Shown: in pieces, positions 1,880 to 27,309 of the stretch
Numbering within the stretch: position 1 is the stretch's first letter
How the letters are laid out: every line of letters begins with the position of its first letter
Origin: Tricholoma matsutake
Taxonomy: Eukaryota; Basidiomycota; Agaricomycetes; Agaricales; Tricholomataceae
Direction: 5' to 3'
Length of the DNA stretch: 64,000 nucleotides
Assembly: GCA_026075535.2 (NCBI GenBank)
Contig: AP026542.1
Location: 2,666,001 to 2,730,000 of the forward strand
Program-made: the position numbers and the translations under genes
Notes under the pieces: generated by a model
Databases searched by the model: none
What the model was told of the DNA's origin: nothing
The model's input: the letters and a program-made list of their open reading frames with translations, nothing else

Positions 1880-2020
1880 TTCCGGTTTTCGTATGAAAAT
1901 GCAGGAAGAGGGGAGGAAGAGGTTCACATTTAGGAGGTCCTGAACTGGAAGTTTGAAGCTCGAAGTGGCATACAGTATTCAGGAGTTCCATGATCATGCA
2001 CCTGATAATCCCACCAATCA

Positions 2021-2069
2021 CCTCTTATTAGAGGTGGAGCTACATATGAGGTCCTCCTCTAATAAGAGG
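2021..2069. repeat. Short inverted repeat (stem-loop)
   Basis: The 14-base arms at 2021-2034 and 2056-2069 are exact reverse complements (CCTCTTATTAGAGG / CCTCTAATAAGAGG) separated by 21 bases. Each arm is itself nearly palindromic. The surrounding AT-rich sequence may be a decayed element end. Confidence 0.6.
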
Positions 2070-6092: not shown

Positions 6093-6124
6093 TGCATCCA
6101 TGTGGGCCCAGTATACAGATTCAC
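5992..6124 (+). repeat. Dispersed repeat covering the alpha-kinase 3' end, copy 1
   Basis: This stretch matches 19230-19361 at high identity. It encodes the last residues of the alpha-kinase (core DFCKTTIDPSVVDWAH) plus about 30 bases past the stop. It contains TGGGCCCA-type palindromes that recur in the neighbouring repeats. Confidence 0.75.
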
Positions 6125-6430
6125 TGCCGGTGATGATTCTTCCCAGTGGTAATTGCTGAAAGATTCTCGGTGGCAGTAACATCTGACTCACGGCACTGGC
6201 TAGCATGGTCACCATTTTACTACATGGCACCGGCGATGATTATTACTGGTGGTAATTGCTTGATCTGTGTGGGCCCAGTGAATAGAATTATAGCACCAGC
6301 AGCAACAATCGCCGCCAGTAATTGCTAGAAAAATATGGTCTACCCTTCACGGGTGATGATTCTCGCCGCCGGTAATTACTGAAAAGATTGTAATTGCCGA
6401 AAAATGGTGCTGGCTAGCATGGTTGACATA
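6125..6430. repeat. Degenerate tandem repeat, GGTAATTGCTGAAA units
   Basis: Irregular units built on CCGGTGATGATT followed by GGTAATTGC recur at about 6128, 6230, 6300 and 6350. A GGCTAGCATGGT segment appears twice (about 6205 and 6412). A similar fragment follows the second alpha-kinase tail near 19.38 kb, so the module travels with that tail. Confidence 0.6.
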
Positions 6431-6669
6431 TACATTAAGCAAAACAAAAGAAGTTGCTAGTGATAATTTTACGATGTCCTTGGTAAAGAATTCATCATTG
6501 TCCTGCACTTCTGCTGCATTAATTGGGCCATCTGGCACATTGCCTCATCAAGGGTGGTGAGCTGCCGGTGAAGGGCATGGTTTACTGCAATGTTGGACTT
6601 CACCGTCTTGACGGCCTTGCGGTAGCTGTGTTCAACAGCATCAGAATAAGTCAAAATCTCCTACAATCA

Positions 6670-7986: not shown

Positions 7987-8095
7987 AAGACGTGAAAATT
8001 GATCAACAAACGCGGTCACATGAATTTTGAATATGGAAGTTGAAAATTTATTGACGCTATCAACTGCATCCACCCTAAGTACAAACAGTTTTATC

Positions 8096-9894
8096 ATGTC
8101 TTCTCAGCACACCGAATCCATGGAGCGCGCCCTCAATACATTTTTGGATGGTACTCGGATGACCGTGGATTTGAAATCCATGTTGGGCAAGTTGGTGTGT
8201 GATTTTTATTATGTCCTATGAATCTTTCTAAGAAGGTGTTGAAGTTGGATTATAGGAAAAAGGTGTTGGCGAAGGAAGCGGCGATGATGCCGTTCCTCAA
8301 ACACATGTTCAAAGTACTCCATCAGTGGGATAAGTCTGGCCCAGTACCTTGGGAATCCATCGACCGGAGAATATATATTCGTCAACCTTCGCCCGTTGCT
8401 GTGCCAAGCAGCACTCTCCCGGCCATGCACGTTATGCTCCAAATCCCCACCACAGCTATGCCACCCATTGTTGCTCCTGGTTCTGCAGCCACATCACTCA
8501 TCGCCGTGTCTGCACCCATTCCCACCACTGCGACACCGGAGGCTCAGACCAACCAAACAGAAGCAGCTGCAAGAGCCCAGAGCAAGGGCAAGGGCAAGGG
8601 CAAGGAAAAGAAGGTCATAGAACACCTGGCTCCACCTCAGTCAAAACGCCGAAAGGTGTTGCCACAGCTGGTGCCACCTGAAACAGAGGACAGCAACATC
8701 ACAAAAGAGCCACCATTCATCCATGCCAACCTGCCAATCATGATGGCCACTCCTGCTCTACCTGAAGACGATATATGGAGGTCCGTTGTGGAACAGCCCA
8801 CTGCTCTGTGCGACACCTGCAGTTTGAGGGGCCTGACAACCTGCCAAACGATGGGCATCCAGATTGCTTGTGTGATGTGCCACAAGGGCAAGACAAAATG
8901 CTCATATACAGCATCATGTACAGCACAGTGAGATGAATTGATAGCAGCAGGGGAGCTCAAGGGGAGAAAAAAGGTCATTGGGAAGAAAAAGGTGAAGGCA
9001 GAGGAAAGTGAACGACCAAGAATGGCGCCGAAGAGACAACGCCGGGCAGCAGACACTGCCGGTGAGTCAGATGAGTACATCCCCATCACGCCAGCCCCCA
9101 TCCCCTCAACTTCACGCATCTCCGACCATATACCAACCCCAGAGCCTGTCCCGTCAACAAGCCTCACAATCCCCCAATCCATCGACACCACGCTTCCTGC
9201 ACCACTGCCACCAGGTCGTGTCACCCATCCCAATCGCATGCCCACCGTCGGTGGTTTACAACAGGAGCTCCAAGACCTCCGCACACTCGTATCGGTCTTG
9301 GCAGAAAATCAAGGGAAATTGGATAAGGAAAGCCTCATGTTACATGGATACATGGAAGTTTTGAACACGTTGAAGGAAAAGATGACAGTGAGCATTCCGG
9401 CATTGGAGGCTGAGATGGGTGAGTTGAGAGAAAAGGTGCTGGTGAGCATTCCGGTGCTGGAGGCTGAGATGAGGGGGTTGAGGAATGGGATGGAGTTGGA
9501 GAAGATGAAGCAGGAGGTTTTCATGTTGCGTGGTCAATTGGCGGCAACAAACAAGCGGCTGGCCGAATTGGAGAACGAGGGAAGCTTCGAGGAGGAATCA
9601 GAAGATGAAGATCCACGGAATGCAGATGCCACGGCGCCGTTGACAATCCATCTCCCAAAGTCATCAATGTTCGTCAATCCAGCCCATTTGCGCGAATCCA
9701 TTCACTCCCCACCATCGCCTGTTCCCATTATTATGACCACAGCTACATCGGTGATCCCTGACACCAGTTCTTTCACCAATGCAGCTGCAACTTCTACCTC
9801 CCCGGATCCAACATCAACATACACTGCACAAATGTCCCCCCTCCCGCCTGATACCACTGTCTCAATTCCAAAAACATCAACACCCCCAGCATAA
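8096..9894 (+). pseudogene. Zn-cluster plus coiled-coil protein, split by one in-frame TGA
   Basis: Exon 1 (8096-8194, MSSQHTESMERALNTFL) splices in phase 0 through a 38-base intron (8195-8232, GTGTGT...CTAAG) to a long exon at 8233-9894. The first part has a basic KGKGKGKEKK tract (about residues 150-160) and a cysteine cluster near its end. That cluster has the spacing CX2C-X7-C-X8-CX2C-X6-C, resembling a fungal Zn2Cys6 DNA-binding cluster. TGA at 8929-8931 then interrupts the frame. The same frame continues for 321 codons with a basic stretch, a coiled-coil region rich in E/K/L (about 9250-9600), an acidic patch EESEDEDP and a Pro/Ser/Thr tail. It could be one gene with a nonsense mutation, or a functional protein ending at the TGA. 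The role is unknown. It is probably a multi-copy transposon-linked gene. Confidence 0.55.
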
Positions 9895-10675
9895 TTCTAT
9901 GTTGGATAAAAATTAACAATATTTTTTATACTATGCCTATTTGTGTATATATTTTGATCAGTATATGCATAGTTGCTTCATTAATAGATGGAGTATAAGG
10001 TATATATTGAATTCATCATGCTGTAGGAATGTGGAAGGAGGCTACAAGGATAGATACAACAAATGTACATTGAAGTGACCGACACTGGTAGTGATAAAGT
10101 CGCCGGCGGCCATAAGCGTAACAGTGGAGCTAAGCGAATGACCGGTGCCGGTTACTGTATGAGCTAAGAAAATGTGTATGGGCCCATCCTAACATAATGC
10201 AGGGAAATGGGCCCATATGAATGATATGCCCGATGGAATGATCGGGTGGGCCCATGACAGTAAAAGGAAAACAGTATGGGCCCACATGACTTCAGTGCAT
10301 CTCTGGCGCCAGAAAACATAAAGTCGGCGCAGGCGATTCACATAGCTCTTAAAAGATTTGTATTGTAATAGCAGCAGTAATTCAAGTCCTGTACGCTATA
10401 GTTGGGGGGGCCCATACTGTTTTAAGTCATCTATTTAGGAAAAGATAAAGTGGGCGCCGGTCATGCACATAGTTCTTAAAAGACTTGTATGCTAATCGCG
10501 GCCAGTGTGCACTAGAACATGGATAAACAAAGGAATGGTGACATGCTGTATGCTGTAGGAATGTGGGAGGATAAGGATATATGCAAAATCAGTACATTGT
10601 AGTGACTGGCGCCGGTAGTGAAAAGTGCCCGGCGCCAGGAGTGAAAAGGTGACCGGCGCCAGTAGTGATAAAGTC

Positions 10676-11704
10676 GACGGTCCGAGAAAATGATGCCCAA
10701 CTTCAGAAGGACAGGAAATTGTTGGCTTACTGGGAGGATGTGCGGAATCAGGTTAGGGAGCACCTTGACACTTAACAAGTCGTCTATGTAGGAAAAGATA
10801 AACATTGTAGTGACCGGCGCCGGTAGTGATAAAGTCACTTGTGGCGATAAGCATCCAAGGTCAAGAACTAAGTGAATGACTGGTGCCGGTTATTGTAGAA
10901 CCCCATGAGCTACGAAAATGCATATGGGCCCATCCTAAAATAATACAGGGAAATGGGCCCATATGAATGATATGCTCGATGGAATGATCGGGTGGGCCCA
11001 TGACAGTAAAAGGAAAACAGTATGGGCCCACACAACTATAGTGTACAGGACTTGAATTACTGCTGTTATTACAAATCATAAAGAATATATCCTAAAACAG
11101 TACATTGTAGTGACCGGTGCTGGTAGGGAGATACACAGGCACATAACAGAAGAGAACAATCATTAGTCGAAGACAGTAGTAATGTGCAATGAGAGTAGAC
11201 ATAGATTAATCCTGACACTGGCCGGAAAGCAACTGTCGCTTGTGTGGCAGTCAGCTATTTCCAAACTGTATCTCTCGGCGCCAGAAAAGGTAAAGGTGGC
11301 ACTGGTCATCCACATAGCTCTTAAAAGACTTGTATACTAATTGCGGCCGCTGTGCACTACAATATGGATAACAAATGCAGGAATGGTGACATGCTGTATG
11401 CTGTAGGAATGTGGGAGGATAAGGATATATGCAAAATCAGTACATTGCAGTGACCGGCGCTGGTAGTGATAAAGTCACTGGTGGCAATAAGCATCCAAGT
11501 CAAGAGCAAAGCAAATGACCGGTGCAGAATATATGCTAAAACAGTACATTGGAGTGACAGGCACTGGAGAAGACAATGTCGTGCTGATCATTCCCATAGC
11601 TCTTAGACTTGTACACTAATCACTGCCAGTGGTCACTGATAATGAAAAGCAATGACATGCTGTAAAAGTAAGAAACTATTGACCAATGGGTATCACAAAC
11701 ACTG
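10676..11704 (+). repeat. Approximately 1 kb duplicated segment, copy 1
   Basis: It matches 20955-21983 nearly end to end in the same orientation. It starts inside the 3' end of an open frame (…AYWEDVRNQVREHLDT then stop at about 10773) and ends just after TATCACAAACAC. Here the frame keeps CAG where copy 2 has TAG. Confidence 0.85.
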
Positions 11705-11765
11705 TGTGCACTAATCACCACCGGATGACCGGTGCAGAATATATGCTAAAACAGTACATTGGAGT

Positions 11766-12127
11766 TGTAGAACCCCATGAGCATGCATATGGGCCCATCC
11801 TAACATAATACATGGAAATGGGCCCATACGAATGATACGCTCAATGGAATGATCGGGTGGGCCCATGACAGTAAAAGGAAAACAGTATGGGCCCACACAA
11901 CTATAGCATACAGGACTTGAATTACTGCTGTTATTACAAATCATAAAGAATATATCCTAAAACAGTACATTGTAGTGACCGGCGCTGGTAGGGAGATACA
12001 CAGGCAAGTAAGAGAAGAGAACAATCATTAGTCAAAGACAGTTAGTAATGTGCAATGAGAGTAGACATAGATTAATCCTGACACCAGCCAGACAGCAACT
12101 GTCGCTTGTGTGGCAGTCAGCTATTTT
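11766..12127 (+). repeat. Third partial copy of the palindrome-rich module
   Basis: It repeats 10894-11270 (and the matching part of the copy near 21.2 kb), from GTAGAACCCCATGAGC to GTGTGGCAGTCAGCTATTT, with scattered transitions and small indels. Confidence 0.8.
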
Positions 12128-12713
12128 CTAACAGGATGTCTTGGCACCAGAAAACATAAAGTTGGCGCCCAACATGGTGTAGTGATAATGTTACCAGGGG
12201 CAATAAGCATACAAGTTCAGAGCTAAGCAAATGACTGGTGCCATGATCAGCGATGGTCACTGTACATGACCTAAGGAAATGTCTATGGGCCCTTCTCATA
12301 AAATAATCTATACACAAACAGTACTTTGTAGGGACCAGTGATAGTAGTGACAATGGCAGTGATAATGCACCGGCACTTAGGGGCACATAGTTTGAAGAAT
12401 ATATGCATGGTTATTTCATTAGTAGATGAAATATATAAGGGATGTATTAAATGTATTGCATCCATGGCAGCGCCAAAAAAAAACTATCCGCCGACTGCGG
12501 TGATATCCAAAGGCATGGTTTATTGTGCATGTCGGTGTCTTAAGTCAAACGTATCCTGGGGGTCAGTGGATGCATCTCCACAAGCTTTTGGTCTTGGCTT
12601 TGGACGGAGGCCGGGATCCATTGTCACATTCATCACTTCAACATCAGTGTTGCTGGGCTTTGATTTTTTAGGCCACCGGCTGTGACTATTGTGGTCATTC
12701 AACCATGCTCTTT

Positions 12714-15080
12714 TCAGCTTTCCCTTGCCAGCTTTCCCTTGCTTCCTTCCACTGGTGTACTCGTTCCAGCATCCTGTGTTGTAGTCACTTCATCGGTGTT
12801 GCAAGCGCAGGATCTGTGGTCATTCGACCGTGCTCTTTTCAACTTTCCCTTGCTTCCTTCCGCTGGTGTACTCATTCCAGCATCCTGTGTTGTAGTCACT
12901 TCATCAGTGTTGCGAGCGTGGGATCTTGATTGTGTTTTCATCCAACGCTTTCTGTGGTCAGGGATTACACTATCGGTTGAAGCAACTGATGTTGCCTCAG
13001 GGATGGTATCCATCAGTAATGAAGCTAGTGTCATGTTCTGGTGAGAATTTTGACCTTGCCGAATGGCCGGTCGGAGGGCAGGTGCAGTGGAATCATGGAT
13101 ACTACCATGTTCCATCCATGCAGGAACTGGACTGTTCATTAAATGACCCCCACGCTCCAAATCTGCAAGATAGCTAGCGTAGGTAGGCTCTGTCATGTCG
13201 ACTCCTGTAGGACCGGTCGTCAAACCCGTCATCGCTGGAATATTGTGATCCTCCGCTGTTACGTATCAGCCAGGTGGAATGAGCACCTTCTGGAGCATGG
13301 GATCGAACAAAAGGTCCCATTCCAGCGGCATCAGGTTTTCCAGTAGCAGTGGAGCTAACCCAGTGGCTTGCTGCTTTTTCTTTTGTTGTTTCGGTACTGG
13401 TGCACTCTCACTTTCGGGTTGCTGTGTGGTGGCCTTGGGCCATTTGCCTTTTGTTTCCTTTTGGTTTGTTTGCGCTTCAGCAGATTGCATGGAGCTGCTG
13501 TTGTTCCTTCAGTCTCCGTGTCATCCAAGTCTGTAAGTTCTTGTAATCGAACTGCCAGCCAAAGTGTTCCCTCCCGTGAATTAAGGACATTTGTAAATTT
13601 GAAACCAATCTTTCCTTCTTCCTGCCTTCCCATCCAATGGGTAAAACATGCCTTGATATCATGTTTATGCATTTTCAATGGTTCCCACAATAATACAAAC
13701 TCCTCATCCAGTGATTCATCTGAGTCTTCCAGTGCCGCAGTCAATGCTCGTGATCTCCCCGGCGCTGAGGAAGTTGCACAGCTCTTTCCTCCTTTCTGCA
13801 GAGGTATATAGTCCACCTGGTTGATAAATTCGGATTGCTGTGTGTGAATATCAAGCCACAGGACATGACCAGAGGTTCTCCTTGCAGCTAAATCTTGCCG
13901 GGGATCAGTATCTTCATTAATCAAAAATGGTTCACTCACTGTACATCCTTTCAATGTATGCCTGTAAAACTTGTTTTTGGTAATTCAAAAACTGGGCATT
14001 GTCACCGTGGTGGATAAGACAGTTCGCTGGTAGCAGTGGCTGTCCCTTCACTCCAGTCTCCAGGATTTGTTTAGGCTTTGCCCCACCAGCAGGTCATATC
14101 ACTGATTTCTCCTCTTCATCGGCGGTGAGATATTCCTCGATGTATGCCTTGAATGTGTCTGCAATAGGCTTTTCATGCCACCCAGGTTCATCGGCGATGA
14201 AATTTGGCTTATTGTTGCCTAGAAAGCTATTTGTTTCAAACCTACAAATTCTTCATTAGTCGCCGTTAAATGCCAGGTGAATGGACATACACGCTCCACT
14301 TCCTCTTGCCTGCTGGATTTACCCATCCACCCAACACAACCATTTGAACCCCAAGTTCAAGGTACATCAAATTTTGAAATTCATTCATACACTTTGTGAG
14401 CATTTTCTCGGCATCCCTAAGATCAATTCAGCCAAGTTACTGAATTACGGGTGATACACGTACTTTTGCCGAACAGCCAACGGTGGGCTGGTATTCATCC
14501 ATTGTTGCCAAAGTGCCTCAATCTTTGCGTTTTCCTTTGAATCATTGGAGATTCTTTTGTTGACCTTGGCATATTGCCGCGAATATTTGGCCATCCAGTC
14601 CGGTCATCCTTTCTCTAGTTCTGGAGCCTCCCATCCAATCGCCACCTCTATTTCTGACCCATACAGGTGGATAATTACTTTGCGCCATGGAGGGACCTTG
14701 CTGACCGCTGCCTTTGGTGGTTTGCAAGCATTTTGTCTGTACCAAGCTCTAATACACTGATAATCATGTTTGTCAAAGAGCAGAATATACATCAAGGGCT
14801 TATTGCTCACTTCCTGCAGGCCATCCATTGGAGGTTTAACAGGTAAATTAAATAAGTCTGTCATGGCACCTTGTAAGGTTAGTTGTTGCACTTTGCGGTT
14901 TTTTGATGTCTTCCAGTCATCCACTCGTTGCTGTAGCACATTCAGTTCTGCTGGTGACCACTTATGGGCAACTGGTTGAAATTCCGCATGCTCGTCGGTC
15001 TGATTTCCATCATCTGAGCTAGAACTTGAAGGACAGCTGCCAAAGTCTTCCCCGCTTTGATCAGCATCCTCGGCGGACAT
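12714..15080 (-). pseudogene. Unknown multi-exon, probably multi-copy transposon-linked gene
   Basis: On the minus strand the reading starts at an ATG near 15080 (MSAEDADQSGEDF), with an acidic Ser-rich N-terminus and a conserved-looking block (WSPAELNVLQQRVDDWK). TGA at 14604-14606 interrupts the frame in the middle of a continuing sequence (LEKG-stop-PDWMAKYSRQYAKV). A further exon after an acceptor near 14420 reads DAEKMLTKCMNEFQNLMYLELG and ends near VYVHSPG. Separate open stretches at 13355-13954 and 12714-13232 lie downstream on the same strand. The first has a basic KRKQTKRKQKANG region. The second contains two near-identical repeats (NTDEVTTTQDAG...STP). I recognise no catalytic family. 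The style and setting are those of gene families that multiply with transposons in Agaricomycetes. The exon chain is only partly resolved. Confidence 0.45.
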
Positions 15081-15089
15081 GATAGTCAA

Positions 15090-16152
15090 TGTGGACGCAG
15101 TAGACAGGTTGTGCTGGCAAATACATTAGGTACCTTGATATTGCATCAGACTGTCCCTGAGGACTATTTACAGGTCATATTTCAGCCTCAATATACCCTA
15201 ATATACCCACGACTTCGCTCGGTACACCTTTAATCCTCTTGCCACACCTTAATATATCACAATGTCCCTGAGCAGAACAGCGAGTAGTGGAGTATTATTA
15301 GCTGGGTGGTCCGCCAATTATTTAGAATTTTATAAAAAAAAGGTAAGATTAGTAAACCATCATTTGTTGTCTTCAGTCATGGCTCCAATCGAGCCATTCG
15401 AGCCATTCGAGCCATTCGCCGATAGATGGATGTGTTGTCAGTGGGGCCGCAATTACAATGTCAGTGGCAGGGTACATGCAGCAAGTATGGTTGAATATCA
15501 CAAATGACAAGCTAATTTACCTACACCGCCGTTACACACTTCCACCGTGCTGGCACACCACACACATCGCCGACACAGCTACCGGCGACAGCATAGCCAC
15601 CTATGGTGCATCACCAACTCACCAACACCTGATATACCAATGTATGTGTTACAGTGAGTTATGACCACCCCATGCTACCAACACACTCCCACGGCGCCGG
15701 CACAGCTACACACATCGCCGACACAATCACCCTCGCCACCGGCACAGCCACAGGTGAATACAACAACAACACGCCGGCGATATGCATCCTGGCAACGGCA
15801 CCATACATCTTTATTACCCTTCCATCCACATCCAGCAGCGCCGACATTATCCTATTGATGTGGTATTTTCATATTATGTGACTATGCCCAATGTGGCCTT
15901 CACAAATCACACACTACACTTGATGCGGCCTTTTACTTGCACGGTCGATCTTTTTCTTATATATTACTTATTTTTTATTCCTTAACCTTCATGCCTACTT
16001 CCATGCAACAAAGGTATAGTAACTTCCAGTTCTTTTAATTGTAGTAACTTATGGTTCCTACTTCCATCCAACGAAGATAATTTGATCCTGTCTTTCCCGT
16101 AAACATAAGTCTAGTGTAGGCTGCCAAACACGGCATCCTTCCAATTACCTGG
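15090..16152. other. No gene; simple and low-complexity sequence
   Basis: This holds a short triplication of GAGCCATTC (about 15390-15418) and a C/A-rich stretch at 15520-15850 with repeated CACCGGCACAGC-like words. No protein motif or RNA gene was seen. Confidence 0.5.
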
Positions 16153-16421
16153 CTACTCAAAACCCCAGACATTTCCTACCCATGGATGTATGGCTTTGAA
16201 AATATGCATGGAGGAAGTGGCCATCCTTTTCCAGTTCGCCGCCTGACGTTTGGTATATGCCACAGCTCCCAGCGAGGTCTGAGTCTCCAAGCAGTTAACC
16301 CAGACCTCTGCTCTGTGAAGAAAATAACGTGGGATCCAAGCCATTTCATGACTAGTAATTGATAACTCCTCCGACCATCTATCATGTTTGGCATTCACCC
16401 GTAACCAGTGCACCCTGTAGA
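16153..16421 (-). pseudogene. Detached last exon of a KDZ transposase
   Basis: On the minus strand an acceptor TTATTTAG is followed by FYRVHWLRVNAKHDRWSEEL, then a stretch including WIPRYFLHRAEVW. This is the typical C-terminal end of Kyakuja-Dileera-Zisupton (KDZ) transposases, ending with a stop at about 16153. No other KDZ exon lies upstream on this strand. The intron remnant at 16422-16447 runs straight into a copia fragment. The phase (two bases before the first full codon) fits the orphan donor of the KDZ gene at 25533 on the plus strand. The two are therefore best read as halves of one gene separated by an inversion. Confidence 0.8.
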
Positions 16422-16447
16422 CTAAATAATAGTGAAGTCACTCATTA

Positions 16448-16531
16448 AAGTAGTTGCCAAATCCAACCTTCTTTGCTGGGTTCCTCAAAACCAGCAGGCT
16501 GTTCCATGTACTGCACCTGTTATTCTCAACA
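16448..16531 (-). mobile_element. 5' piece of a copia element (LTR vestige plus RT fragment)
   Basis: On the minus strand it begins TGTTGAGAATAACA (16518-16531), identical to the first 14 bases of the LTR at 26687. It jumps directly into reverse-transcriptase sequence (QYMEQPAGFEEPSKEGWIWQL), which lies just before the YGMKQ motif in copia RT. It then stops at the junction with KDZ intron sequence. The five bases before it (minus-strand ACGCC, 16532-16536) equal the five bases after the 3' LTR at 26993-26997. So this is the 5' terminus of the same, internally deleted, copia insertion. Confidence 0.8.
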
Positions 16532-16536
16532 GGCGT

Positions 16537-17140
16537 CAAGTACTAATACCCATCATTCCCAAGGTTTCTGAGTAATGAGAAGTTTTAGAAGATGCTGGTT
16601 GGTCTCGAGTTAGTGTTAACATTAATACCCTCTTTGCTGTACTGAGTTAAAACAGCTCCATGCAGCCATATCCATGACTTCCCAGCTGGCTTACGTGTGG
16701 TGCAGCTACTCTTTTCCAGCACCTCATGAATGTCAACTCCTGTCAGGACCTTTGCGCGATTCTCCCCAACAACCAATGATCCTATCGCTACCATACAGGC
16801 AGATTTGGGCCAAGAAACTGTCCAACCACCCCTGGGGAGTACCAAAGGTGTGTTTGGTGTCCGCCTTGAAATTCTGCAGCCTGACCATATTACAACACAA
16901 CCTGCATGTCCAGATAACTCAGAAATGACCAGAAATCACAGCGCATAGGCCTCGCTGTTACTCTTGATGCCTTCGCTGAGGCTTCTAGGGTTTAGACCAC
17001 CCATGAATGGCCACTAATACGTGTGTTCTGGGTCTCAATGGCAGCTCCAGGTATTCACCGTTTCATCTCTGTTCCAAGTATCTTCTGATGGTTCTTTATA
17101 ACTAGGTCTTTCCATAACCTTCAGGTGGAACAATTGTGGG
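16537..17140. other. No assigned gene
   Basis: A minus-strand open frame of 86 codons (16585-16845) and short plus-strand frames occur, but none carries a motif I recognise. Confidence 0.4.
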
Positions 17141-18990
17141 TGAGACTTGCTGCATCGACCAATGGTCATCCAGTTCCTGTTCGTGGATTTGGGTCAGAGA
17201 TTAGTGATCATTAGTCAGGCAAGGGCAACTGAGAGTGATGTGGCTCAATATAGTTATCATGATGGTGAGTTCAAATTGTGGCCATGCACCTGCGAATAGA
17301 CCCCCAGAATATTTCTGTATTACGTTCTTTGGTGGGTGATGCTGACTATTTCAAGGTGAAGCAGGGTCTGAATCATTTAAGGACTGAGAGAATTTCAGTT
17401 CAACTTCACCAGTTCCCTCTAGTATGTCAGTATAACCATCGAACAACAACCCAACTGGGATTAACCAGTTTGAAGATTGCCATAGGTTGAATTCTTGCCC
17501 TCCAGTGTCTTGACTATTGACCAGTTCCTCATAGCTAGGTCAGATGACAACTCTGTCGAAGCTATCATTCACGACTATGATCATCGAGGTATTATGAACC
17601 GGAATCTGATCAGTGAGATTCTCCTTGCTGAGCACAATATTCACATGAGGTAACCATATTTTTGTTATTCTCATATTACTGTGCTAATGTACTGTCACAT
17701 AGTGCTACTACGGTTGCACACCGTCGTGGGCAGTATGGCCTCAAAGGAAGTGGATGGACAACTAAAGAGCTCCCACTACCAGTTAAGCGACAACTTGTGT
17801 TGGACAAAATGGCCAAAGATCCAACCAGTAGGAAAGGGCCAAAGACTATTATCAAGGGAATCGGTCTTACCCAGGGTATCTATCTGACTCAGTATGATGC
17901 CAGCCTGGAAAATCTTTTCGCTTTTTTTTTTCTTCATTCGTATTCCCCTTTGACAGTGAGTTTGTTCATTCAACAATGCACACCGAGGATCCCGAAGGTT
18001 TTAGCATTTGTGAACCTTCTGCTAAAAAGATAAAACAAGGAGTTTTGACTGCAATTGGCCCTCACCAAGAATGGAGTGGTGACAGACATGACAAGCTAGC
18101 TGTGATCGGTTTCCCAATCTGGGGATGCATGATAAATGGGGATTGCAATGGTTAGGACTCTGGGTGGTTCCAAATAATTGACTCAAGAAAGCAGTTGCTT
18201 TGTTATATCTTCGGCTCATCAAGAAACATGGTGGTGAGTACTACTATTGTTTAATCAAACTGACTGCAGCTAAAATTTATATTCCAGGTATGCCAATGCA
18301 GATGAGCACCGACTGTGGAAGTGAAACCACTGAGGTGTTTGGTTTAGCCAATGCACTGAGGTAAATTGTGTCATAGACTTTCGAAATAAGAGTTACCCTG
18401 TTTCTAGGGAGATATTTTCGAGCCACCTTGATATCAACGAACTCCCAGCCCACCACTTCATACAGAGCATCTACAACATCACAATTGAACGGGGATGGCT
18501 TCACCTGCACCTCCAATGGGGTGACAATGTCAAAGTATTCTGGGAAGCTGGCTCTGAGATCTACAATGAGTCCAATATTGCACAGTAGTGGGTTTTATTC
18601 TTTTTAATGTTGTCGCTATTCTTATTCTGCCCCAGTAACCTCGTTCAATGGCTCTGGTCAACTCTCATTCAGTCTGAACTCGATAAACTACTGGATCATT
18701 TCAATAACCATGTCATGAGAAAGGACCAAGGAAAACAGCTACCGTCGGGGGTTTCTCCTAATGTTGCCATAGCCATGCCATCAAAGTATGGTGGTGAGAA
18801 TTGTTTGCAGAGAGTGGATATAGATGTCATCAATAAGCTGATGGTGGAGATTGGTGAAGAAGTCCTCCAGTTTGTCACCCTGGAGTATGCAGAGCATGCA
18901 CAAACAGTTTATGATGCTCTCGATCTGGGTCAGTTAACATTTGATAATATCTGGCATGTATTTACAGCAATGCTCCCTCATTTAGAGTAA
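17140..18990 (+). pseudogene. Integrase-like DDE protein gene (fungal integrase-core family), decayed
   Basis: Several plus-strand exons read as the integrase-core protein family that is common near transposons in basidiomycetes. They include RGQYGLKGSGWTTKELPLPV (about 17725) and FSICEPSAKKIKQG (about 18000). The first Asp motif, EWSGDRHDKLAVIGFPIWG, is near 18070-18125. STDCGSETTEVFGLANAL (second Asp, about 18308) is followed by ITIERGWLHLHLQWGDNVKVF (likely Glu, about 18480) and a C-terminal exon at 18637-18990. One base is shifted between GFPIWG and the following KWGLQWLGLWVVPNN. TGA at 18179-18181 falls where an Arg codon is expected. It is thus probably dead. The gene may have moved DNA or been domesticated. 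The N-terminal exons are uncertain. Confidence 0.6.
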
Positions 18991-19229
18991 TCTATTTGTT
19001 CTTTTTCTCCTATGCTCCACCCCATTTAACAAAATTGCAACAAGTTTTATTTGAGAACACATAAAAAAAGGATTGGTTTGTAGATCGAGAAATGAATTGC
19101 CTGTAACTAGGGAGAGGGAAATCCATAATGAAGAGGGCCATCACTTCAAATTTGAGCTCCCTTGAGTTTAAGCTTTTTGCAGAGATCATTGCATTTGTGG
19201 GCATTTCCACACTGTTCAGTAAAAAACAA

Positions 19230-19361
19230 CGGTATATCCGTTCAGCGGATTTCTGCAAAACGATGATAGATCTGTCAGTAGCAGATTGGGCCCACATCAG
19301 GAAAGACTTGTGTGGGCCCAGGGTGTGATGCATCCGTGTGGGCCCAGTATACAGCTTCACT
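19230..19361 (+). repeat. Alpha-kinase 3'-end repeat, copy 2 (orphan tail)
   Basis: It encodes a tail nearly identical to that of the alpha-kinase (core DFCKTMIDLSVADWAH; stop at 19326-19328) but with no kinase domain upstream. It is followed by the same TGGGCCCA-bearing non-coding tail as at 6.1 kb. Confidence 0.75.
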
Positions 19362-19430
19362 GAAGAATTCTCGGCAGCAGCAACATCTGAATCATGGCGC
19401 CGGCTAGCACGGTCATCATTTTACTACATG

Positions 19431-19563
19431 TTACCACATATACATGGGCCTATGCAATGCGTGTGATACTGCACAATCGTATTGGCCCACCACTGGTTTT
19501 CTTATAGACATCAGCCTATACGGACATATCGTTGGTGCTGGTTCCCGGTGCTGATGATCATTG
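19431..19563 (+). repeat. Direct repeat, copy 1
   Basis: It matches 19829-19966 (TACCACATATACATGGGCC ... TATTGGCCCACCACTGGTTT ... TTGGTGCTGGTTCC), with transitions and small indels. The spacing is about 400 bases. Confidence 0.7.
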
Positions 19564-19828
19564 TAGGTTTGGTAGGAAAAAGTGCAGCAGCAGGTCAGCA
19601 GGTATCGGTGGTTGGATGCATACGGCATCGGGTCACAGCAGATACAGTTGGATGCATGCGGTGCCGGGACATGCCACACTAGCCAATTGTTTTAGACACC
19701 GATGTGATGTCCTGCTATAGATTATGGTTAGATATAAATGAATGTCCCAATGTTGGGGCCAGAATCCGGAGGTATGAGCGCACAATTTTACTGACTTGAC
19801 AGAGGGTGTAGTTAAGAGTTTGAACTGC

Positions 19829-19966
19829 TTACCACATATACATGGGCCCATGCGATGATTCCATTTGACAGGGAACGATCGTATTGGCCCACCACTGGTT
19901 TTCCTATAGACATCGGCCCATACGGACTTATCATTGGTGCTTGTTCCTGGCACTGATGATAATTTT
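19829..19966 (+). repeat. Direct repeat, copy 2
   Basis: Second copy of the repeat at 19431-19563. Its downstream end runs into the unknown open frame at about 20.0 kb. Confidence 0.7.
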
Positions 19967-20019
19967 GTCCATTGATTACTTAATCATCCAAACATTCTGT
20001 ATCTACAACTGCATTGAAG

Positions 20020-21055
20020 TTATGATATCCTACTATACAAACCTCGAATCCATGCCTCGCTGGCCATATAAAGCTGACCCTGTTACTGCTGGCAAATTCA
20101 CTACCGCATTGAATCAAATAGAAGTCAAGCATCAGAGGAACACCAATTTCCTAGAGAACCCTCACCCTACAGTCAAACCTACTGAGTTCCATGAGCAGGC
20201 CATCGCTGCTCAACAGGTAGCTCATGATCTCAGCATTCGAGAGAGTACTATGGGACTACTACCAGCACGGAATGATCTAGCACATGGGCAGGAAGTGCTG
20301 TTGTATGGAATGTCACGTCTCCATGCTGCAATCACTGCATGGATCCTTGCGGTAGATAACGATGAAGACTACGAAGAGTCATGGTTGGGGTGGGTGTCTA
20401 GCCTATTTTTTGAGACTGTAAGTGAACATATTGTGATTGCCAATTATCTGATCACCAATACCAACTTAGAAGGAATTCTTGATGGCCACTGGAATTTATG
20501 CCTCTATGGGTGGCAGTGCTCCCTACACTCCCCCGCTCGTCATGGAAACCATAAAGATGGTACAGGATGGGACTTTGGGGTGCTCAGAACGCAATGATCC
20601 TGAGGGCAAAGATTTTCTGGAACTAGAATACATTCCAGTGATACAAAGGTACTTGAAGGTTGATGCTGATGACCCCACCCATATTGTCGATAGCTATATC
20701 AATTCTTAGTGGAGTAAACAGAACGATCTGGAGAACTATGACTCATACCCATTCGCTCCACACGACTTCCTGGTGGTTCATCGGCCACAGGTGAGTAACA
20801 TGTTGTTGTCCTTTAATTTATCTTAAGTTTCATCAGATCCAGTTCACCTGGCAAGACCTACGGCCAGTCCCATATGCCGCCGGTGACCTGGCCAAAATAC
20901 AATTAATGATGAAGATCTTCGATGACCTGCATTTGACATAGAAAAGGATGACTGAGACGGTCCAAGAAAATGATGCCCAACTTTAGAAGGACAGGAAATT
21001 GTTGGCTTACTGGGAGGATGTGCGGAATCAGGTTAGGGAGCACCTTGACACTTAA
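20020..21055 (+). pseudogene. Unknown transposon-linked coding remnant
   Basis: A plus-strand reading (PRWPYKADPVTAGKFTTALN, about 20053 on) continues for about 140 residues, including ESWLGWVSSLFFETVSEHIV. It shifts frame near 20480 (GGSAPYTPPLVMETIKMVQD), passes TAG at 20707-20709, and after an intron-like GTGAGT...CATCAG ends with AYWEDVRNQVREHLDT and a stop near 21055. TAG interrupts it again near 20983 where the duplicate at 10.7 kb has CAG. No family is recognised. Its 3' end is carried on the approximately 1 kb duplication. Confidence 0.45.
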
Positions 21056-21983
21056 CAAGTCGTCTATGTAGGAAAAGATAAACATTGTAGTGACTGGCGC
21101 CGGTAGTGATAAAGTCACTTGTGGCGATAAGCATCCAAGGTCAAGAGCTAAGTGAATGACCGGCGCCGGTTATTGTAGAACCCCATGAGCTACGAAAATG
21201 CATATGGGCCCATCCTAAAATAATACAGGGAAATGGGCCCATATGAATGATATGCTCGATGGAATGATCGGGTGGGCCCATGACAGTAAAAGGAAAACAG
21301 TATGGGCCCACACGACTATAGCATACAGGACTTGAATTACTGCTGTTATTACAAATCATAAAGAATATATCCTAAAACAGTACATTGTAGTGACTGGTGC
21401 CGGTAGGGAGATACACAGGCACGTAACAGAAGAGAACAATCATTAGTCAAAGACAGTAGTAATGTGCAATGAGAGTAGACATAGATTAATCCTGACACTG
21501 GCCGGAAAGCAACTGTCGCTTGTGTGGCAGTCAGCTATTTCCAAACTGTATCTCTCAGCGCCAGAAAAGGTAAAGGCAGCACTGGTCATCCACATAGCTC
21601 TTAAAAGACTTGTATACTAATTGTGGCCGCTGTGCACTACAATATGGATAACAAATGCAGGAATGGTGACATGCTGTATGCTGTAGGAATGTGGGAGGAT
21701 AAGGATATATGCAAAATCAGTACATTGCAGTGACCGGCGCCGGTAGTGATAAAGTCACTGGTGGCGATAAGCATCCAAGTCAAGAGCAAAGCGAATGACC
21801 GGTGCAGAATATATGCTAAAACAGTACATTGGAGTGATGGGTGCCGGAGAAGACAACATTGCGCTGATCATTCCCATAGCTCTTAGAATTGTACACTAAT
21901 TGCTGCCGGTGGTCACTGATAATGAAAAGCAATGACATGCTGTAAAAGTAAGAAACTATTGACCAATGGGTATCACAAACACC
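20955..21983 (+). repeat. Approximately 1 kb duplicated segment, copy 2
   Basis: Direct, near-identical copy of 10676-11704, 10.3 kb away. This copy keeps the coding sequence to its left, so it looks closer to the source. Most differences seen are CG against TG or CA. Confidence 0.85.
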
Positions 21984-22141
21984 GCCGGTGTAATTTTACA
22001 TTGGAAACATTGACAGTAGCTTTGTGAGTATGACCTAGGTAACATGTTAGTATGCTGTGTAGAACAGTCCCATAGTAACCTCTACATGGACCATTGTCAT
22101 TTACATCGCCATGTTGCCATGTTTCCTCACTGCCTACAGTG

Positions 22142-22148
22142 CCTATAT
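22142..22148 (+). promoter_or_regulatory. TATA-like box before the KDZ gene
   Basis: TATATAA lies about 50 bases before the ATG at 22197 used for the KDZ transposase. Position and sequence are plausible for a core promoter, but there is no independent support. Confidence 0.35.
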
Positions 22149-22196
22149 AATCCTGGAGATGCTTGTTCATAATTTTACATCGCTCTACAAACCATC

Positions 22197-25100
22197 ATGC
22201 CTAGAGGACACACTCGCACCATCATTGGAAGAATCACCCAGATGACTGTCGTTCGATCCCAGACATCGCAGGGACCCAGGGATCGCCTTGTACCAGTTTG
22301 GCAAAGTCCTCAGTCAACTCCAAGGCATAAGAAGGCCAAGATAAGTGCACCAGTGTCAGGATCAGCGACCACATCCAACACCAATATAACATCTCTGATG
22401 TCCGATGAACCAATTGAGCATCACGCTCTAAATTTCATTGCAGATCTTGATCCCCCCTCTTCAAAGGTGACTTATTATGGCTACCACATTTACTATGCTA
22501 ATATTACCCTCAGACACCTCAAGATTACATCGAAGAATGGTTACCTAAAAAGGCCATGTATTTGGAAGCACTACTATCCAATGAAGTACCCGATTGCATG
22601 AAATGCAATTTGTGTGGGGATGATGCTGCTACCTGGTGATGCCGAGACTGTCTTTTCAATCCCATGTTCTGTACTGACTGCTGCCATGATAACCATGCTT
22701 CTAACCCATTTCACCGCATTGACCACTGGACAGGTTCCTATTTTGAACCAGCTTGGTTGTTCCAAGTCGGGTTAGTTTTACATCTCAGTCACAATGGTGC
22801 ATCCTGCCCAAGTTACTTTCACCCATCGGCGCCAGATGTGGTTGGACAAGAGGCCGACAATTATGAAGATGATTTGGATGATGCAACAGAAGGTGATGGA
22901 ACCAACAACATCGTCAAGGAGATGAAAAGGTTTACCAGTGTTTATGACCTTGGTCCCACAACTTTCCCAATGCCGATGGATTGTCACAAATTGACAGTAA
23001 TCGATGTTTCTGGTGTACATCGTATGTGGGTCAAGTGGTGTAATTGCCCTAATTCCCGTCAAGAGCAGGAAAATCACTTGTTGCAATCGGGGCTTTTCCT
23101 GGTCAGCTACAAAAATATCAAGACCACGTTCACATTTAAAGTTCTTGATGATGTGCGATTGTCCAATCTGGAATGTAAATCTTCAGCCTATCAATACTAC
23201 CAGAAGCTCCGGTGCATGACTTCACCCTTATTTCCTAGTGCTGTGGAGGTATGACTGATATACTACAGTTGTCAATATCTCTGACATCAGTACTTGAGGA
23301 TCGATACAGGGAGCTTCTCAGGGCAAGCTGGCTATGGCGAATGTTGAAACATTTGAAGTGGAGAGGCTGCTGGGGAGAATCACAGTCCAGTGCTGGTGGC
23401 TCATTGGCGGCTGCAATGCATGGTGCGACTGACATCCCAACATTCTGTGCTGCATGTCCTCAGCCTGGTGTCAATCTGCCAGAAAATTGGACCGAGGATC
23501 CTGACCAGTAAGTCAAATCACATGAATTGGAATGTATTTAATGTAATCTTACCTCAGAATGGCATACACTTGGACTTTTGTCATGGATGGAAACTTCACC
23601 GCTGTTCATCAGAAGTGCAAAAATGCTCACCGTGATATTAAGCTCAGTCATGGTGATTTTTTCATGACTGAGCCGAATTGCTACAAAGCACACCTCGCCA
23701 TTGCTAAGGAAGTCACAGAGGTAAGATATTTGAAAGACTTTCAGCATATTTACTAACTCCAAATTAGAAACCGACCTGCAATGAGCATCATGCTGTAAAT
23801 GACTGCTTCATCAAATACAAGGGTCTTGATGTAACTGGTGTCAGTGCAACTGCTTGTGGCTGTCATGGTTGCTTCTGCCCCAGTGCGGTGGTTGACTTCC
23901 AAAAAGGGGAACGGTGAGATATCTTCACATTTTGAGAGACATTGTGTAATGTTTTCTAGACAAGCAAACATGGACTATTCTTTATCTGAAGCCTTGAAAA
24001 ACACTAATATCACCAGACTCAAGAAAATCATTTTGATTTATGATATAATGTGCCAGTATTGGAAGAGGCTCAGACTTCGGATGGAGGAGAGTCAGTAGAT
24101 CCAGCTACCACTTGGCATCGCCATTCTGCATGGTATTGGTCTTTTCCATGTTGGTGGCCACGTCTGGCAATGTTTCTCATGCTTTTCACCAAGTTTCATT
24201 CCTGGCGCCGGACAAGTGGATGGAGAAATCCTTGAATCATTGTGGTCAGTGTTGAATGAAATCTCACCTAGTACCCAAAATGCTACCATTTCTGGATGGA
24301 TTGAAACCTTGGATGATCATATGGGGGATTCCAACTTCAAAAAAATGCAGGACATAGGTGAATACATGTTTGTACCTTGTGCCAGATTGACTTGGAACTA
24401 GATGTAGTGGTTACCACCGCCCACCGATTCAGAGCCGCTGTGGCAGGTGAGGAGGAAAGTCGGGTGGACCTATTGCAGTACACGGCAAACTCAGACCCTG
24501 AGGAGATTGCAACCTGGAAAGAATTGGAAAAGCACTCTCAGGCAACACGTCTAACCGATCCAGAAGCAATGGACATCTATGATATAAACCCTGGTCAGGT
24601 AGTGGTCACACAAAGTGACCTTCAAATGAACCTTCTAGAGGATGAAGATGAAACTGGTGATGGAAAGGGTGAAACCACCTGGGTTGCTCTTGGCCTCAAA
24701 CTTGAGGGAGCCCAGTGCATATCCAGCCATTGCAAAATATTCCTATGCTAACTAGTATCAGACTGGCTCTTCGGACCTTTATATGTCAACAGCGTTTGGT
24801 GTTGTCCAAGGCCGATAAGCTGAAGATTGCAACAAAATGGCAAAACCTTGATACCAGAGTGGATTCCTTCATTGCTAAATCAGAACAATTTGTGAACAAT
24901 GACACATTGGATACACTGCAAAAGCTTATGACTCACCACCGAGACCAGTACTCCCATCACAAGCTCCCGATTACCAGACTAACTTGGATGATGATGATCA
25001 AAGCAACCCGTTTATTACAAGGCCCCTGGTAGCAGCAGTCCATACCGCTGAAACACGCCCATTACCTCTTCCCTCTACATTTGGCTTTCCACAAATTACT

Positions 25101-25533
25101 CAGCTTGGTTTGGATTCCCTCACCGAGAAAGAGTTGAGATTGAGGGAAGGACAAGCAAACAATGAGCTCCAGGGCACTAGAATGGCCCTCAGTGAGAAAT
25201 CTTTCTTATTCAGAAAGAATTTACGTCTCGCCACCTCCAAGAACAAAAAGGGAAGGGCTTGGTCAAAGGTGCATGCTATTAGCCACCAGGTTCAAGCACA
25301 TCATCAGGTATACAATGCTGCGAGGGCTGCAATGGTATAATTGGGATGTTCACCTGAGATGCAGTCCAAGTATCAGGTATTGCACTGGGATGAACTCAAG
25401 ATTTCAACTGCCGCGGTGAGGGGTGGTACCAGCAATGCTGAGGGTGGAAGCCGGAGACAGGATGAACCATTGCCATGGTTTGGGACCATTAATGTCCAAG
25501 CCGATGTCGAGGCAAGCGAAATGATGAAAGAAT
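22197..25533 (+). pseudogene. KDZ-family transposase, missing its last exon
   Basis: ATG 22197 opens a basic N-terminus. The next exon carries the CxC2-type cysteine cluster of KDZ transposases (CMKCNLCGDDAATW, then CRDCLFNPMFCTDCCHDNH). Later exons give CGCHGCFCP, the catalytic YDIMCQYWKR (Asp, about 24045), GIGLFHVGGHVWQCF and QVDGEILESLWSVLNEIS (Glu, about 24230), followed by LDDHMGDSNFKK. Introns have clean donors and acceptors, including 23513-23560 (GTAAGT), 23721-23767, 23928-23960 and 24715-24755. TGA at 22637-22639 replaces an Arg of the cysteine cluster. TAG at 24096-24098 and TAA at 25338-25340 also interrupt the frame, and a frame change occurs near 24970. The final donor (GAAT|GTAAGT, 25533/25534) has no acceptor: copia sequence follows. 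The matching last exon is at 16153-16421 on the other strand. Confidence 0.85.
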
Positions 25534-25553
25534 GTAAGTACACCTCAATTCAC

Positions 25554-26679
25554 TATGGCATGAAACAAAGCAGGCAAATATGGAATCAAACCCTCAATGC
25601 CCAAATGATTGAATGGGGGTTCACCCGTTTATCCTGTGAATCTTGCATATATTACCGCAAGTCCGACTCTGGGACCATTATTGCAGCTGTCCACATCGAT
25701 GACTACCTGTCCATTGCTGACTCCACGAGCGAGAATGATCGCTTCAAGGATCAGATGAGGAAGGAATGGACTATTTCTGAGTTGGGCATGGCACGCTTTA
25801 TCATCGGGATTGCTGTCACCTGGGACAGGACTAACAGAACTGTCACGCTATCACAGACAGTGCTGATTGACAAAATTGTCAAACAATTTGGCCCACCCAG
25901 TATCTGCACCTCTAGAACCTGGTTCCAAATTACGCTGTGCAAATTGACAATCCATGTCCTCTGAGGACCAGATTCAACTCAACAAACTCCCTTACTGATT
26001 GCTCATAGGTTGTCTACTCTATCTAGCCATTGGTACACGTCCCGATATTTCTTATGCCGTCCAACAACTCTCGCAATACCTTGATTGCTATTCCTTCGAA
26101 CATTGGATGGCAGCCACCAGGCTAGTGCATTACCTCAAAGGTACAAGGGATCTTCAACTTCATCTTGGTGGTGATCATCCTATATCCCTCCATGCATTTA
26201 GCAATTCCGATTGGGCTAACTGCCTTGACACATGTCGCAGTGTAGGTGGTTATACATGCTCCCTCAGTTCTGGCGCCATCTCCTGGACAGCGTGTAAACA
26301 AAAAGTTGTCGCAACTTCGTCGTGCGAGGCCAAATATGTTGCTGCGTTTGAGACAGCTAAGGAATGTATTTGGTTGCGAACGCTACTTCATACCATCAAT
26401 CATCAACAATCACCCCCAACAATAATCTACTGCAACAACTCAGCCACCAAGACATTATCCGAAGATCCCCTCCTTCACTCCCGTGTTAAACATGTCGACA
26501 TAAAATACCATTTCCTTCGTGAACGCGTCCAATCAAATGAATTGCAACTCATCTATGTCAACACCCACGAGAATGTCGCAGATATGTTCACGAAGGCGCT
26601 GGATGTCAAACAATTCACTTACCTCCGTAGCTTCCTCTTCGATAACTCGATTCCATGCGAGGAGGAGTACTCACGGTGA
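25554..26679 (+). mobile_element. 3' half of a copia pol gene (RT end and RNase H)
   Basis: It starts at YGMKQSRQIWNQTLNAQM and continues with HIDDYLSIAD, the RT catalytic region (family YVDD; here HIDD, so the first of the conserved residues differs). Copia-type RNase H follows: LYLAIGTRPDISYAVQQLSQ, SDWANCLDTCRSVGGY, SSCEAKYVAAFE, HVDIKYHFLRERV and NVADMFTKALD. There is no gag, protease or integrase. The frame breaks near 25965 between RT and RNase H. It ends just before a polypurine run GGTGAGGAGGAG and the LTR. Its missing 5' side is at 16448-16531 on the minus strand. Confidence 0.85.
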
Positions 26680-26686
26680 GGAGGAG
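26675..26686 (+). other. Polypurine tract of the copia element
   Basis: GGTGAGGAGGAG lies immediately before the LTR, as expected for plus-strand priming in LTR retroelements. Confidence 0.6.
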
Positions 26687-26992
26687 TGTTGAGAATAACA
26701 CCGTGAGCGCATACGAACGCCGTATTACCATATACGGATCTCGGCACGTATTTGATGCGTGCCCTATATTTAGCGCATCCCTTTGAGGCGTGTGTTTGTA
26801 GCCATGTTATGGATACCTTTCTGCCATTCTCCTTTATCTAACATGGCTCGTATATATACAGTAGATAGATATCTGACCACCTCAGTCGCTTATACAGAGA
26901 CTGAGGTGAGTACCGACGTTATTATTTAGTAGTGAATGATTACTTACTGTACTTACAGTTTACTCTTATTGTACTAGGATTGATTTTCTACA
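26687..26992 (+). repeat. 3' LTR of the split copia element (306 bases)
   Basis: It begins TGTTGAGAATAACA and ends TTTTCTACA. A TATATATA box lies near 26850. It is followed by ACGCC (26993-26997), the target-site duplication shared with the element's displaced 5' end at 16532-16536. The 5' LTR survives only as its first 14 bases. Confidence 0.8.
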
Positions 26993-27196
26993 ACGCCCTC
27001 GAAGAATGGAGAATATTCACCCAAATGCTAATAGCCCGCTAAAGAGACCTTGCCATTGTACCAACTTCAACCACATACACAGAAACCTTATTGAATCAAA
27101 GAGAGGACTTGATATGTTCAGACTGAGAACTGGTGAAAAGAATCAACGAACAATCCGATTCCACCCGAAGTGAACAGAATGTTGACTAAGCTCGGT

Positions 27197-27309
27197 TAGA
27201 AGCCCTCAATGTATTCTAAATGACCATCGCAAACTTCGAAATTCCGACATCTGTGATGAATTTATATTTCTGATCTTGAAATCCTGGCTGGTACAGCTGG
27301 CGCACCGTA
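27197..27309 (-). repeat. Right copy of the 113-base inverted repeat
   Basis: Reverse-complement partner of 1767-1879, ungapped and about 96% identical. Read on the plus strand this copy stays open (ILNDHRKLRNSDI...FLILKSWLVQLAHR) and looks like a coding remnant of an unrecognised gene. Confidence 0.75.

What the first reader, a model, noticed from the sequence alone, without database searches (positions are those of the whole stretch)
16422..25553. A single inversion of about 9.1 kb reciprocally split a KDZ transposase and a copia element
At about 25.54 kb the KDZ gene ends with an orphan splice donor (GAAT|GTAAGT) and runs into copia RT at YGMKQ. At about 16.44 kb, on the minus strand, copia RT ends at WQLL and runs into a KDZ intron end with acceptor TTTAG followed by the KDZ last exon. 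Inverting the segment between the junctions restores both elements at once. Three independent checks agree: the intron phases fit (1 base + 2 bases), the copia RT halves abut in the family order, and the copia target duplication ACGCC is found at 16532-16536 (minus) and 26993-26997 (plus). The inversion therefore post-dates the copia insertion.
Basis: partly seen in the sequence, partly recalled or inferred. Interest (0 to 1): 0.87.

Follow-up and report, generated by a model that had tools for sequence, protein, structure and literature searches.

The report
A 9.1-kb inversion split two transposons
In the matsutake mushroom a 9.1-kb piece of chromosome 5 was flipped, cutting one large DNA transposon and one retrotransposon in two; the cut ends, the insertion footprints and an undisturbed sister sequence elsewhere in the genome all record the same event, which is a clean but ordinary kind of rearrangement.

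Summary
The inverted segment is 16450-25553 (9,104 bp).

(1) The KDZ breakpoint sequence is continuous at 82 other genomic places (up to 3 mismatches); the window's halves meet there without loss.
(2) The two ends of the 16.8-kb KDZ element carry a perfect 7-bp target duplication, one copy inside the segment and one outside, in inverted orientation. Of 11 other paired copies 8 are perfect, 1 is 6/7, 2 do not match; 0 of 132 cross-pairs reach 6/7.
(3) The copia halves are collinear with other copies and carry ACGCC on both sides, but 11 bp are missing, so they do not exactly abut.
(4) A chromosome 7 paralogue holds both copia flanks fused at one 5-bp site: the empty site, in uninverted order.

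Junctions share 1 and 2 bp, the breakpoints lack homology, and losses are 0 and 11 bp, which fits end joining of two breaks (inferred). A second KDZ copy (chromosome 4) appears split by another inversion. This is a well-resolved example of a known kind. Reads, strains and haplotypes were not available.

The parts
16450..25553 (.). Inverted segment, 9,104 bp (ends uncertain by 1-2 bp because of shared bases)
25552..25554 (+). Junction A: KDZ intron joined to copia RT; 1 bp (T) shared
   Evidence: coordinates
16449..16451 (-). Junction B: copia RT joined to KDZ intron; 2 bp (AC) shared; 11 bp of copia missing relative to 6 of 6 copies
19208..25553 (+). KDZ element, left part (positions 1 to about 6350 of the 16,838-bp C11 copy), inside the inverted segment
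5972..16449 (-). KDZ element, right part (positions about 6348 to 16,838), outside the inverted segment
19201..19207 (+). 7-bp target duplication GCATTTC, left copy, inside the inverted segment
5965..5971 (-). 7-bp target duplication GCATTTC, right copy (read on minus), outside the inverted segment
25534..25553 (+). First 20 nt of the split 48-nt KDZ intron (orphan donor)
16422..16449 (-). Last 28 nt of the split KDZ intron, ending TTTAG; last exon follows
22640..23254 (+). CxC2 cysteine cluster exon of the KDZ gene (E=3.3e-22)
23835..24401 (+). KDZ domain PF18758 in two open pieces (22.0 bits, under the cut-off, and 60.9 bits, over it) separated by an in-frame stop at 24096-24098 that copy L010 lacks
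16450..16531 (-). Copia 5' piece: 14 bp of 5' LTR (16518-16531) running straight into RT sequence; the element had an internal deletion
25554..26992 (+). Copia 3' piece: RT (RVT_2, E=4.6e-19), downstream open frame without a Pfam hit, 3' LTR 26687-26992
16532..16536 (-). Copia target duplication ACGCC, inside the segment
26993..26997 (+). Copia target duplication ACGCC, outside the segment
16532..17379 (-). Copia flank inside the segment, 94.7% identical to the chromosome 7 paralogue (L029 4050-4897)
26993..27213 (+). Copia flank outside the segment, 95.9% identical to L029 4054-3834; contiguous with the first flank on chromosome 7
20956..21982 (+). Arm of the element's 1-kb internal inverted repeat, now in direct orientation to 10676-11702
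10676..11702 (+). Other arm (96.8% identical to 20956-21982)

Best explanation
One balanced inversion of about 9.1 kb. Before it, a 16.8-kb Kyakuja-type KDZ transposon and a copia retrotransposon lay about 2.7 kb apart. A double-strand break fell in the KDZ gene's last intron and another in the copia RT. The piece between was rejoined in the opposite orientation by end joining with 1-2 bp of shared sequence, losing no KDZ bases and 11 copia bases. Shown: order and orientation of the parts, the breakpoints to within 1-2 bp, both target duplications, the empty copia site, and that the event post-dates both insertions. Inferred: two simultaneous breaks and the end-joining pathway. Not known: whether the copia's large internal deletion came before or after. 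Consequences, inferred from sequence: the KDZ gene lost its last exon in cis, and a former inverted repeat inside the element became a direct repeat that could now recombine to delete about 10.3 kb.
For: KDZ copies run through the breakpoint without loss: 24 of 24 copies in both hit lists show the same 3-base overlap, 82 genomic places. The KDZ ends in the window share a 7/7 target duplication in inverted orientation; of 11 other paired copies 8 are perfect, 1 is 6/7 and 2 are 3/7; cross-pairs at 6/7 or better 0 of 132. Copia halves are collinear in 6 of 6 fetched copies with 11 bp between them, and ACGCC flanks both sides. The chromosome 7 paralogue has both copia flanks fused with a single 5-bp site. 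The 600-bp neighbourhoods of the two breakpoints share nothing above 11 bp. The assembly is from PacBio HiFi reads with N50 10-11 kb (PMC10211490, section 3.1 read), so each junction can lie within single reads.
Against: No reads, second strain or phased haplotype could be inspected, so read support, fixation and heterozygosity are unknown. The 5-bp site on chromosome 7 reads ACACC against ACGCC (4 of 5). No empty site for the KDZ insertion was found. The two KDZ halves cannot be tied together by shared variants, because the 20 fetched copies are about equally distant from each. 2 of 11 other paired copies lack a target duplication, so the rule is not without exceptions.
Confidence: 0.95

Rival explanations
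1. Assembly artefact: the segment is placed backwards in the assembly and the true chromosome is collinear.
For: The region is repeat-rich and the KDZ family has more than 80 copies; repeats are where assemblers err. Chromosome 1 of this assembly was joined by hand; chromosome 5 is listed there as single contigs A10 and B4.
Against: The junctions join unrelated sequences with only 1-2 shared bases and lack 11 copia bases; a misplaced contig would be expected to keep those bases and to join within homology. Both junctions would have to be chimeric in a matched way. Reads were not inspected.
Confidence: 0.03
2. Two or more separate events (for example overlapping inversions, or independent deletions and insertions) gave the present order by coincidence.
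For: The copia element also has an internal deletion 68 bp from the breakpoint, so more than one event hit this place.
Against: One inversion accounts at once for KDZ continuity, the KDZ 7-bp duplication, copia continuity, the copia 5-bp duplication and the empty site on chromosome 7.
Confidence: 0.02
3. The inversion arose by homologous recombination between inverted repeats rather than by end joining.
For: The KDZ element contains 1-kb arms that are inverted in intact copies.
Against: Those arms lie about 3.6-5.8 kb from the breakpoints (coordinates). The breakpoint neighbourhoods share nothing above 11 bp, and such recombination would not delete 11 bp.
Confidence: 0.01
4. Transposase-driven rearrangement (aberrant transposition) made the breaks.
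For: One broken element is itself a transposon, and a second copy (chromosome 4) also appears hit by an inversion.
Against: Aberrant transposition is expected to break at element ends (recalled, no call); here both breaks are internal and the KDZ ends keep their 7-bp duplication. The chromosome 4 break is at another element position (about 11,830-11,850 against 6,350).
Confidence: 0.03

Closest known systems
Simple inversions formed at non-homologous sequence, as opposed to those at repeats (two mechanisms named in PMC6861252; only the start of its abstract was seen, in the listing)
   Same: Two breaks without homology, short shared bases, small loss at one junction, balanced product
   Different: Only 9.1 kb and in a mushroom; both breaks fall inside transposons, so the event can be read from one genome
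Kyakuja families of KDZ DNA transposons in Agaricomycotina (PMC12730594; passages and section 3.2.1 read)
   Same: KDZ transposase domain, 7-bp target duplications, 5'-CA..TG-3' termini
   Different: 16.8 kb; the ends form an imperfect inverted repeat (11 of 14 bases at the tip, about 77% over 251 bp), where the paper reports no TIRs for its two Laccaria families; long internal inverted repeat; no TET/JBP domain in the open frames scanned, which were only some of those in the element
Inversions between Tricholoma chromosomes (PMC10627285; passages read)
   Same: T. bakamatsutake and T. matsutake chromosomes differ by multiple inversions
   Different: Those come from gene positions at chromosome scale; this is a base-resolved 9.1-kb event
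Mesosynteny through frequent intrachromosomal inversions (PMC3219968; passages read)
   Same: Intrachromosomal inversions as a mode of fungal genome change
   Different: Described for filamentous Ascomycetes; this is one event in a basidiomycete

Membership tests
Balanced inversion by end joining | Both reciprocal junctions present | tested here: met
Balanced inversion by end joining | No homology between breakpoints beyond a few bases | tested here: met
   1 and 2 shared bases; nothing above 11 bp in 600-bp neighbourhoods
Balanced inversion by end joining | Little or no net loss of sequence | tested here: met
   0 bp from KDZ, 11 bp from copia
Balanced inversion by end joining | Ancestral order found elsewhere | tested here: met
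   copia target site empty and uninverted on chromosome 7, a paralogue; no allele or other strain could be compared
Balanced inversion by end joining | Joining by the end-joining machinery itself | not testable with these tools
   inferred from the junctions only
Kyakuja lineage of KDZ | KDZ transposase domain | tested here: met
   PF18758 E=6.2e-25 in copy L010; in the window E=1.8e-16 and 1.5e-4, the latter under the cut-off; CxC2 E=3.3e-22
Kyakuja lineage of KDZ | 7-bp target duplication | tested here: met
   window 7/7; other copies 8 of 11 perfect, 1 of 11 at 6/7, 2 of 11 at 3/7
Kyakuja lineage of KDZ | 5'-CA..TG-3' termini | tested here: met
Kyakuja lineage of KDZ | Absence of TIRs, as reported for two Laccaria families | tested here: not met
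   imperfect inverted similarity of about 77% over 251 bp at the ends; so 'Kyakuja-type' is a likeness, not a proven membership
Kyakuja lineage of KDZ | Position in a transposase tree | not tested
   no tree was built
Ty1/copia retrotransposon | RVT_2 reverse transcriptase | tested here: met
   E=4.6e-19 in the open frame 25341-25964
Ty1/copia retrotransposon | TG..CA LTR and 5-bp target duplication | tested here: met
   3' LTR 26687-26992, ACGCC on both sides
Ty1/copia retrotransposon | Integrase upstream of RT | tested here: inconclusive
   this copy lacks the whole region, since its 14-bp 5' LTR stub runs straight into RT; other copies were fetched only as 601-base pieces around the RT

The most novel reading that the evidence does not exclude
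Small end-joined inversions are common in the transposon-rich parts of the matsutake genome, and large KDZ elements are often hit: 2 of 58 copies whose two ends could be paired (56 in proper orientation plus these 2) have ends in the wrong relative orientation with a matching inverted 7-bp target duplication. If so, inverted target duplications would allow small inversions to be counted from a single genome.
Probability: 0.25. Interest if true: 0.5.

Novelty: new member of a known kind. Interest (0 to 1): 0.36.

Why it matters
Small inversions are hard to see without a second genome. Here one genome is enough, because the two broken transposons carry their own before-and-after marks: family sequence across the breakpoint, inverted target duplications, and an empty site. 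A practical caution, as inference: annotation would be expected to report truncated KDZ and copia pieces here rather than one broken pair.

Tried and rejected
Assembly error, separate events, recombination between the internal inverted repeats, and aberrant transposition were considered and rated low (see rivals).

An empty site for the KDZ insertion was looked for with both flanks. One flank found only itself; the other found itself and three weak partial matches. These searches skip very common words, so absence is not proof.

Linking the two KDZ halves by shared variants gave nothing, because the copies are about equally distant: 95.8-97.2% for the left half and 95.4-97.4% for the right over 20 of 20 fetched copies (one of them, L017, over only 288 bp on the right).

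Other mispaired KDZ ends: of 96 left ends found by pattern (at most 2 mismatches; 82 right ends), 56 have a right end in proper orientation within 60 kb (56 different right ends, 53 of them under 30 kb), 36 have no right end within 60 kb, and 4 are odd. Of the 4 odd, 2 show a 7/7 duplication in inverted orientation: the window and C4:11871145/11885244. C8:8794210 does not (1/7); its nearest right end pairs properly with another left end. C13:89094 was not tested; its nearest right end is 41 kb away. Pairs at 43-59 kb may not be true pairs.

Paper searches whose listings (titles and abstract starts) showed no report of this event: KDZ, transposase, target site duplication, fungi; inversion breakpoints with end joining in fungal genomes; Kyakuja and Tricholoma, no paper; inversion breakpoint with split elements; T. 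matsutake, inversion, transposon. Passages of PMC2773423 concerned large maize inversions and did not help. Subscription journals are mostly not held.
Full report
WHERE IT IS. The window lies at 2666001-2730000 of contig 5 of a genome of 161,040,721 bases in 13 contigs. The total and the contig lengths returned with fetched regions (for example 19,249,005, 13,874,649 and 13,809,479) equal those of Table 1 of the Tricholoma matsutake telomere-to-telomere paper (PMC10211490, section 3.1 read), so this is matsutake chromosome 5. That assembly was made from HiFi reads with N50 10-11 kb from two sporocarps, with an estimated heterozygosity of 1.05%.

OBSERVATION. Both hybrid junctions are present. 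A 401-base query across junction A lists its best 40 hits; the 39 other than the window match only 25340-25554. For a query across junction B, of 39 others 37 begin at query position 190 (window 16451), one at 191 and one at 194. 24 copies appear in both lists, and in 24 of 24 the two matches are neighbours with a 3-base overlap. A pattern across the intact breakpoint (29 bases, up to 3 mismatches) occurs at 82 places, 71 of them exact, and at none when read backwards as a control. So the KDZ family is continuous where the window's copy is broken. The break is inside a 48-nt intron with GTAAGT...TTTAG ends. The frame fits: one base of a codon before the intron and two after, followed by 88 open codons.

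COPIA. The copia pieces match other copies in the same order. In the nearest copy (C7:3742359-3742836) and in the five others fetched, 11 bases lie between the point where window 16450 ends and the point where window 25554 begins (6 of 6). The element also has a large internal deletion, since its 5' LTR is 14 bp long and runs straight into RT sequence. Its target duplication ACGCC stands at 16532-16536 (minus) and 26993-26997 (plus).

EMPTY SITE. The copia flank inside the segment (16532-17379) and the one outside (26993-27213) each find one further long match in the genome, both on chromosome 7, at 94.7 and 95.9% identity (one search also lists five shorter partial matches). There the two flanks are contiguous, in the orientation predicted by un-inverting the window, with the 5-base site present once (ACACC against ACGCC). 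This is the state before the copia insertion, in the uninverted order, in a sequence that is not a copy of either transposon by these searches.

KDZ ENDS. Mapping copies showed that the KDZ element is much larger than the gene: 16,838 bp in the C11 copy. The window holds element positions 1-6350 at 19208-25554 (plus) and 6348-16838 at 16451-5972 (minus). Left ends read CACACTGTTCAGTA and right ends CAGCCTATTCAGTA in the window; the two ends are about 77% alike over 251 bp in inverted orientation. Ten further copies were fetched at both ends: 8 of 10 have identical 7-bp duplications and 2 of 10 match at only 3 of 7; the C11 copy has 6 of 7. The window has 7 of 7 (GCATTTC) when its right end is read in inverted orientation. 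Left flanks compared with right flanks of different copies never reach 6 of 7 (0 of 132). One copy of this duplication lies inside the inverted segment and the other outside, so the two halves are the two ends of one insertion.

MECHANISM. At junction A one base, and at junction B two bases, could come from either element. Nothing longer than 11 bp aligns between the 600-bp neighbourhoods of the two breakpoints. KDZ lost nothing and copia lost 11 bp. This is what joining of two double-strand breaks with a turned middle piece leaves; recombination between repeats does not. The pathway itself is inferred. The event came after both insertions. Its order relative to the copia internal deletion is not known.

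CONSEQUENCES. The KDZ gene is cut off from its last exon; it also has an in-frame stop at 24096-24098 that copy L010 lacks. The element's internal inverted repeat (1,027 bp, 96.8% identical in the window) is now a direct repeat, 10676-11702 and 20956-21982.

A SECOND CASE. Of 96 left ends, 56 have a right end in proper orientation within 60 kb, 36 have none within 60 kb and 4 are odd. The copy at C4:11871145 has its right end in the wrong orientation, again with a 7/7 duplication read in inverted orientation. Mapping shows a break near element position 11,830-11,850, with about 20 bp missing, and an inverted piece of about 7.9 kb that takes in the right end and about 3 kb of flank. There is no outside check such as an empty site for this one. 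The breakpoint differs from that in the window, so no common fragile site is shown. Two of 58 paired copies thus show inverted ends; this small count has no matched control.

FAMILY. Published Kyakuja families have 7-bp duplications and 5'-CA..TG-3' termini without TIRs (PMC12730594, passages and section 3.2.1 read), against 8 bp for Zisupton and for the Dileera family named there. The element here fits Kyakuja on duplication length and terminal bases, not on the lack of terminal repeats. No tree was built, so 'Kyakuja-type' is a likeness.

VERDICT. It is a clear example of a known kind of rearrangement. Whether it is polymorphic, and whether such inversions are unusually frequent in this genome, remains open.

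Noticed in passing
L065 and L066 (C4:11877400-11893000), with ends C4:11871145 and C4:11885244: A second KDZ copy apparently split by an inversion of about 7.9 kb, with a 7/7 target duplication (ATCAACC) in inverted orientation and about 20 bp missing at the break.
   Followed up: partly
5972-16449 (-) and 19208-25553 (+): The KDZ element is 16.8 kb, with open frames in its right part (for example 6670-8103 minus, 477 aa) that have no Pfam match above the curated cut-off; their role is unknown.
   Followed up: partly
9949-12452 and 20956-21982: Iterated subrepeats and a 1-kb internal inverted repeat in the KDZ element, also present in the two copies stitched from neighbouring pieces.
   Followed up: partly
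27204-27306, 1770-1872 and 57430-57493: Short pieces similar to one place in the chromosome 7 paralogue (L029 2070-2244), about 1.6 kb beyond the empty site; the paralogue or the window has a further insertion or deletion there.
   Followed up: no
16518: The copia 5' LTR is cut after 14 bp and joined directly to RT sequence: an internal deletion separate from the inversion.
   Followed up: partly
17380-19200: Flank between the chromosome 7 homology and the KDZ left end, with two open frames of 133 aa that have no Pfam match; its last 458 bases find only themselves in the genome.
   Followed up: no
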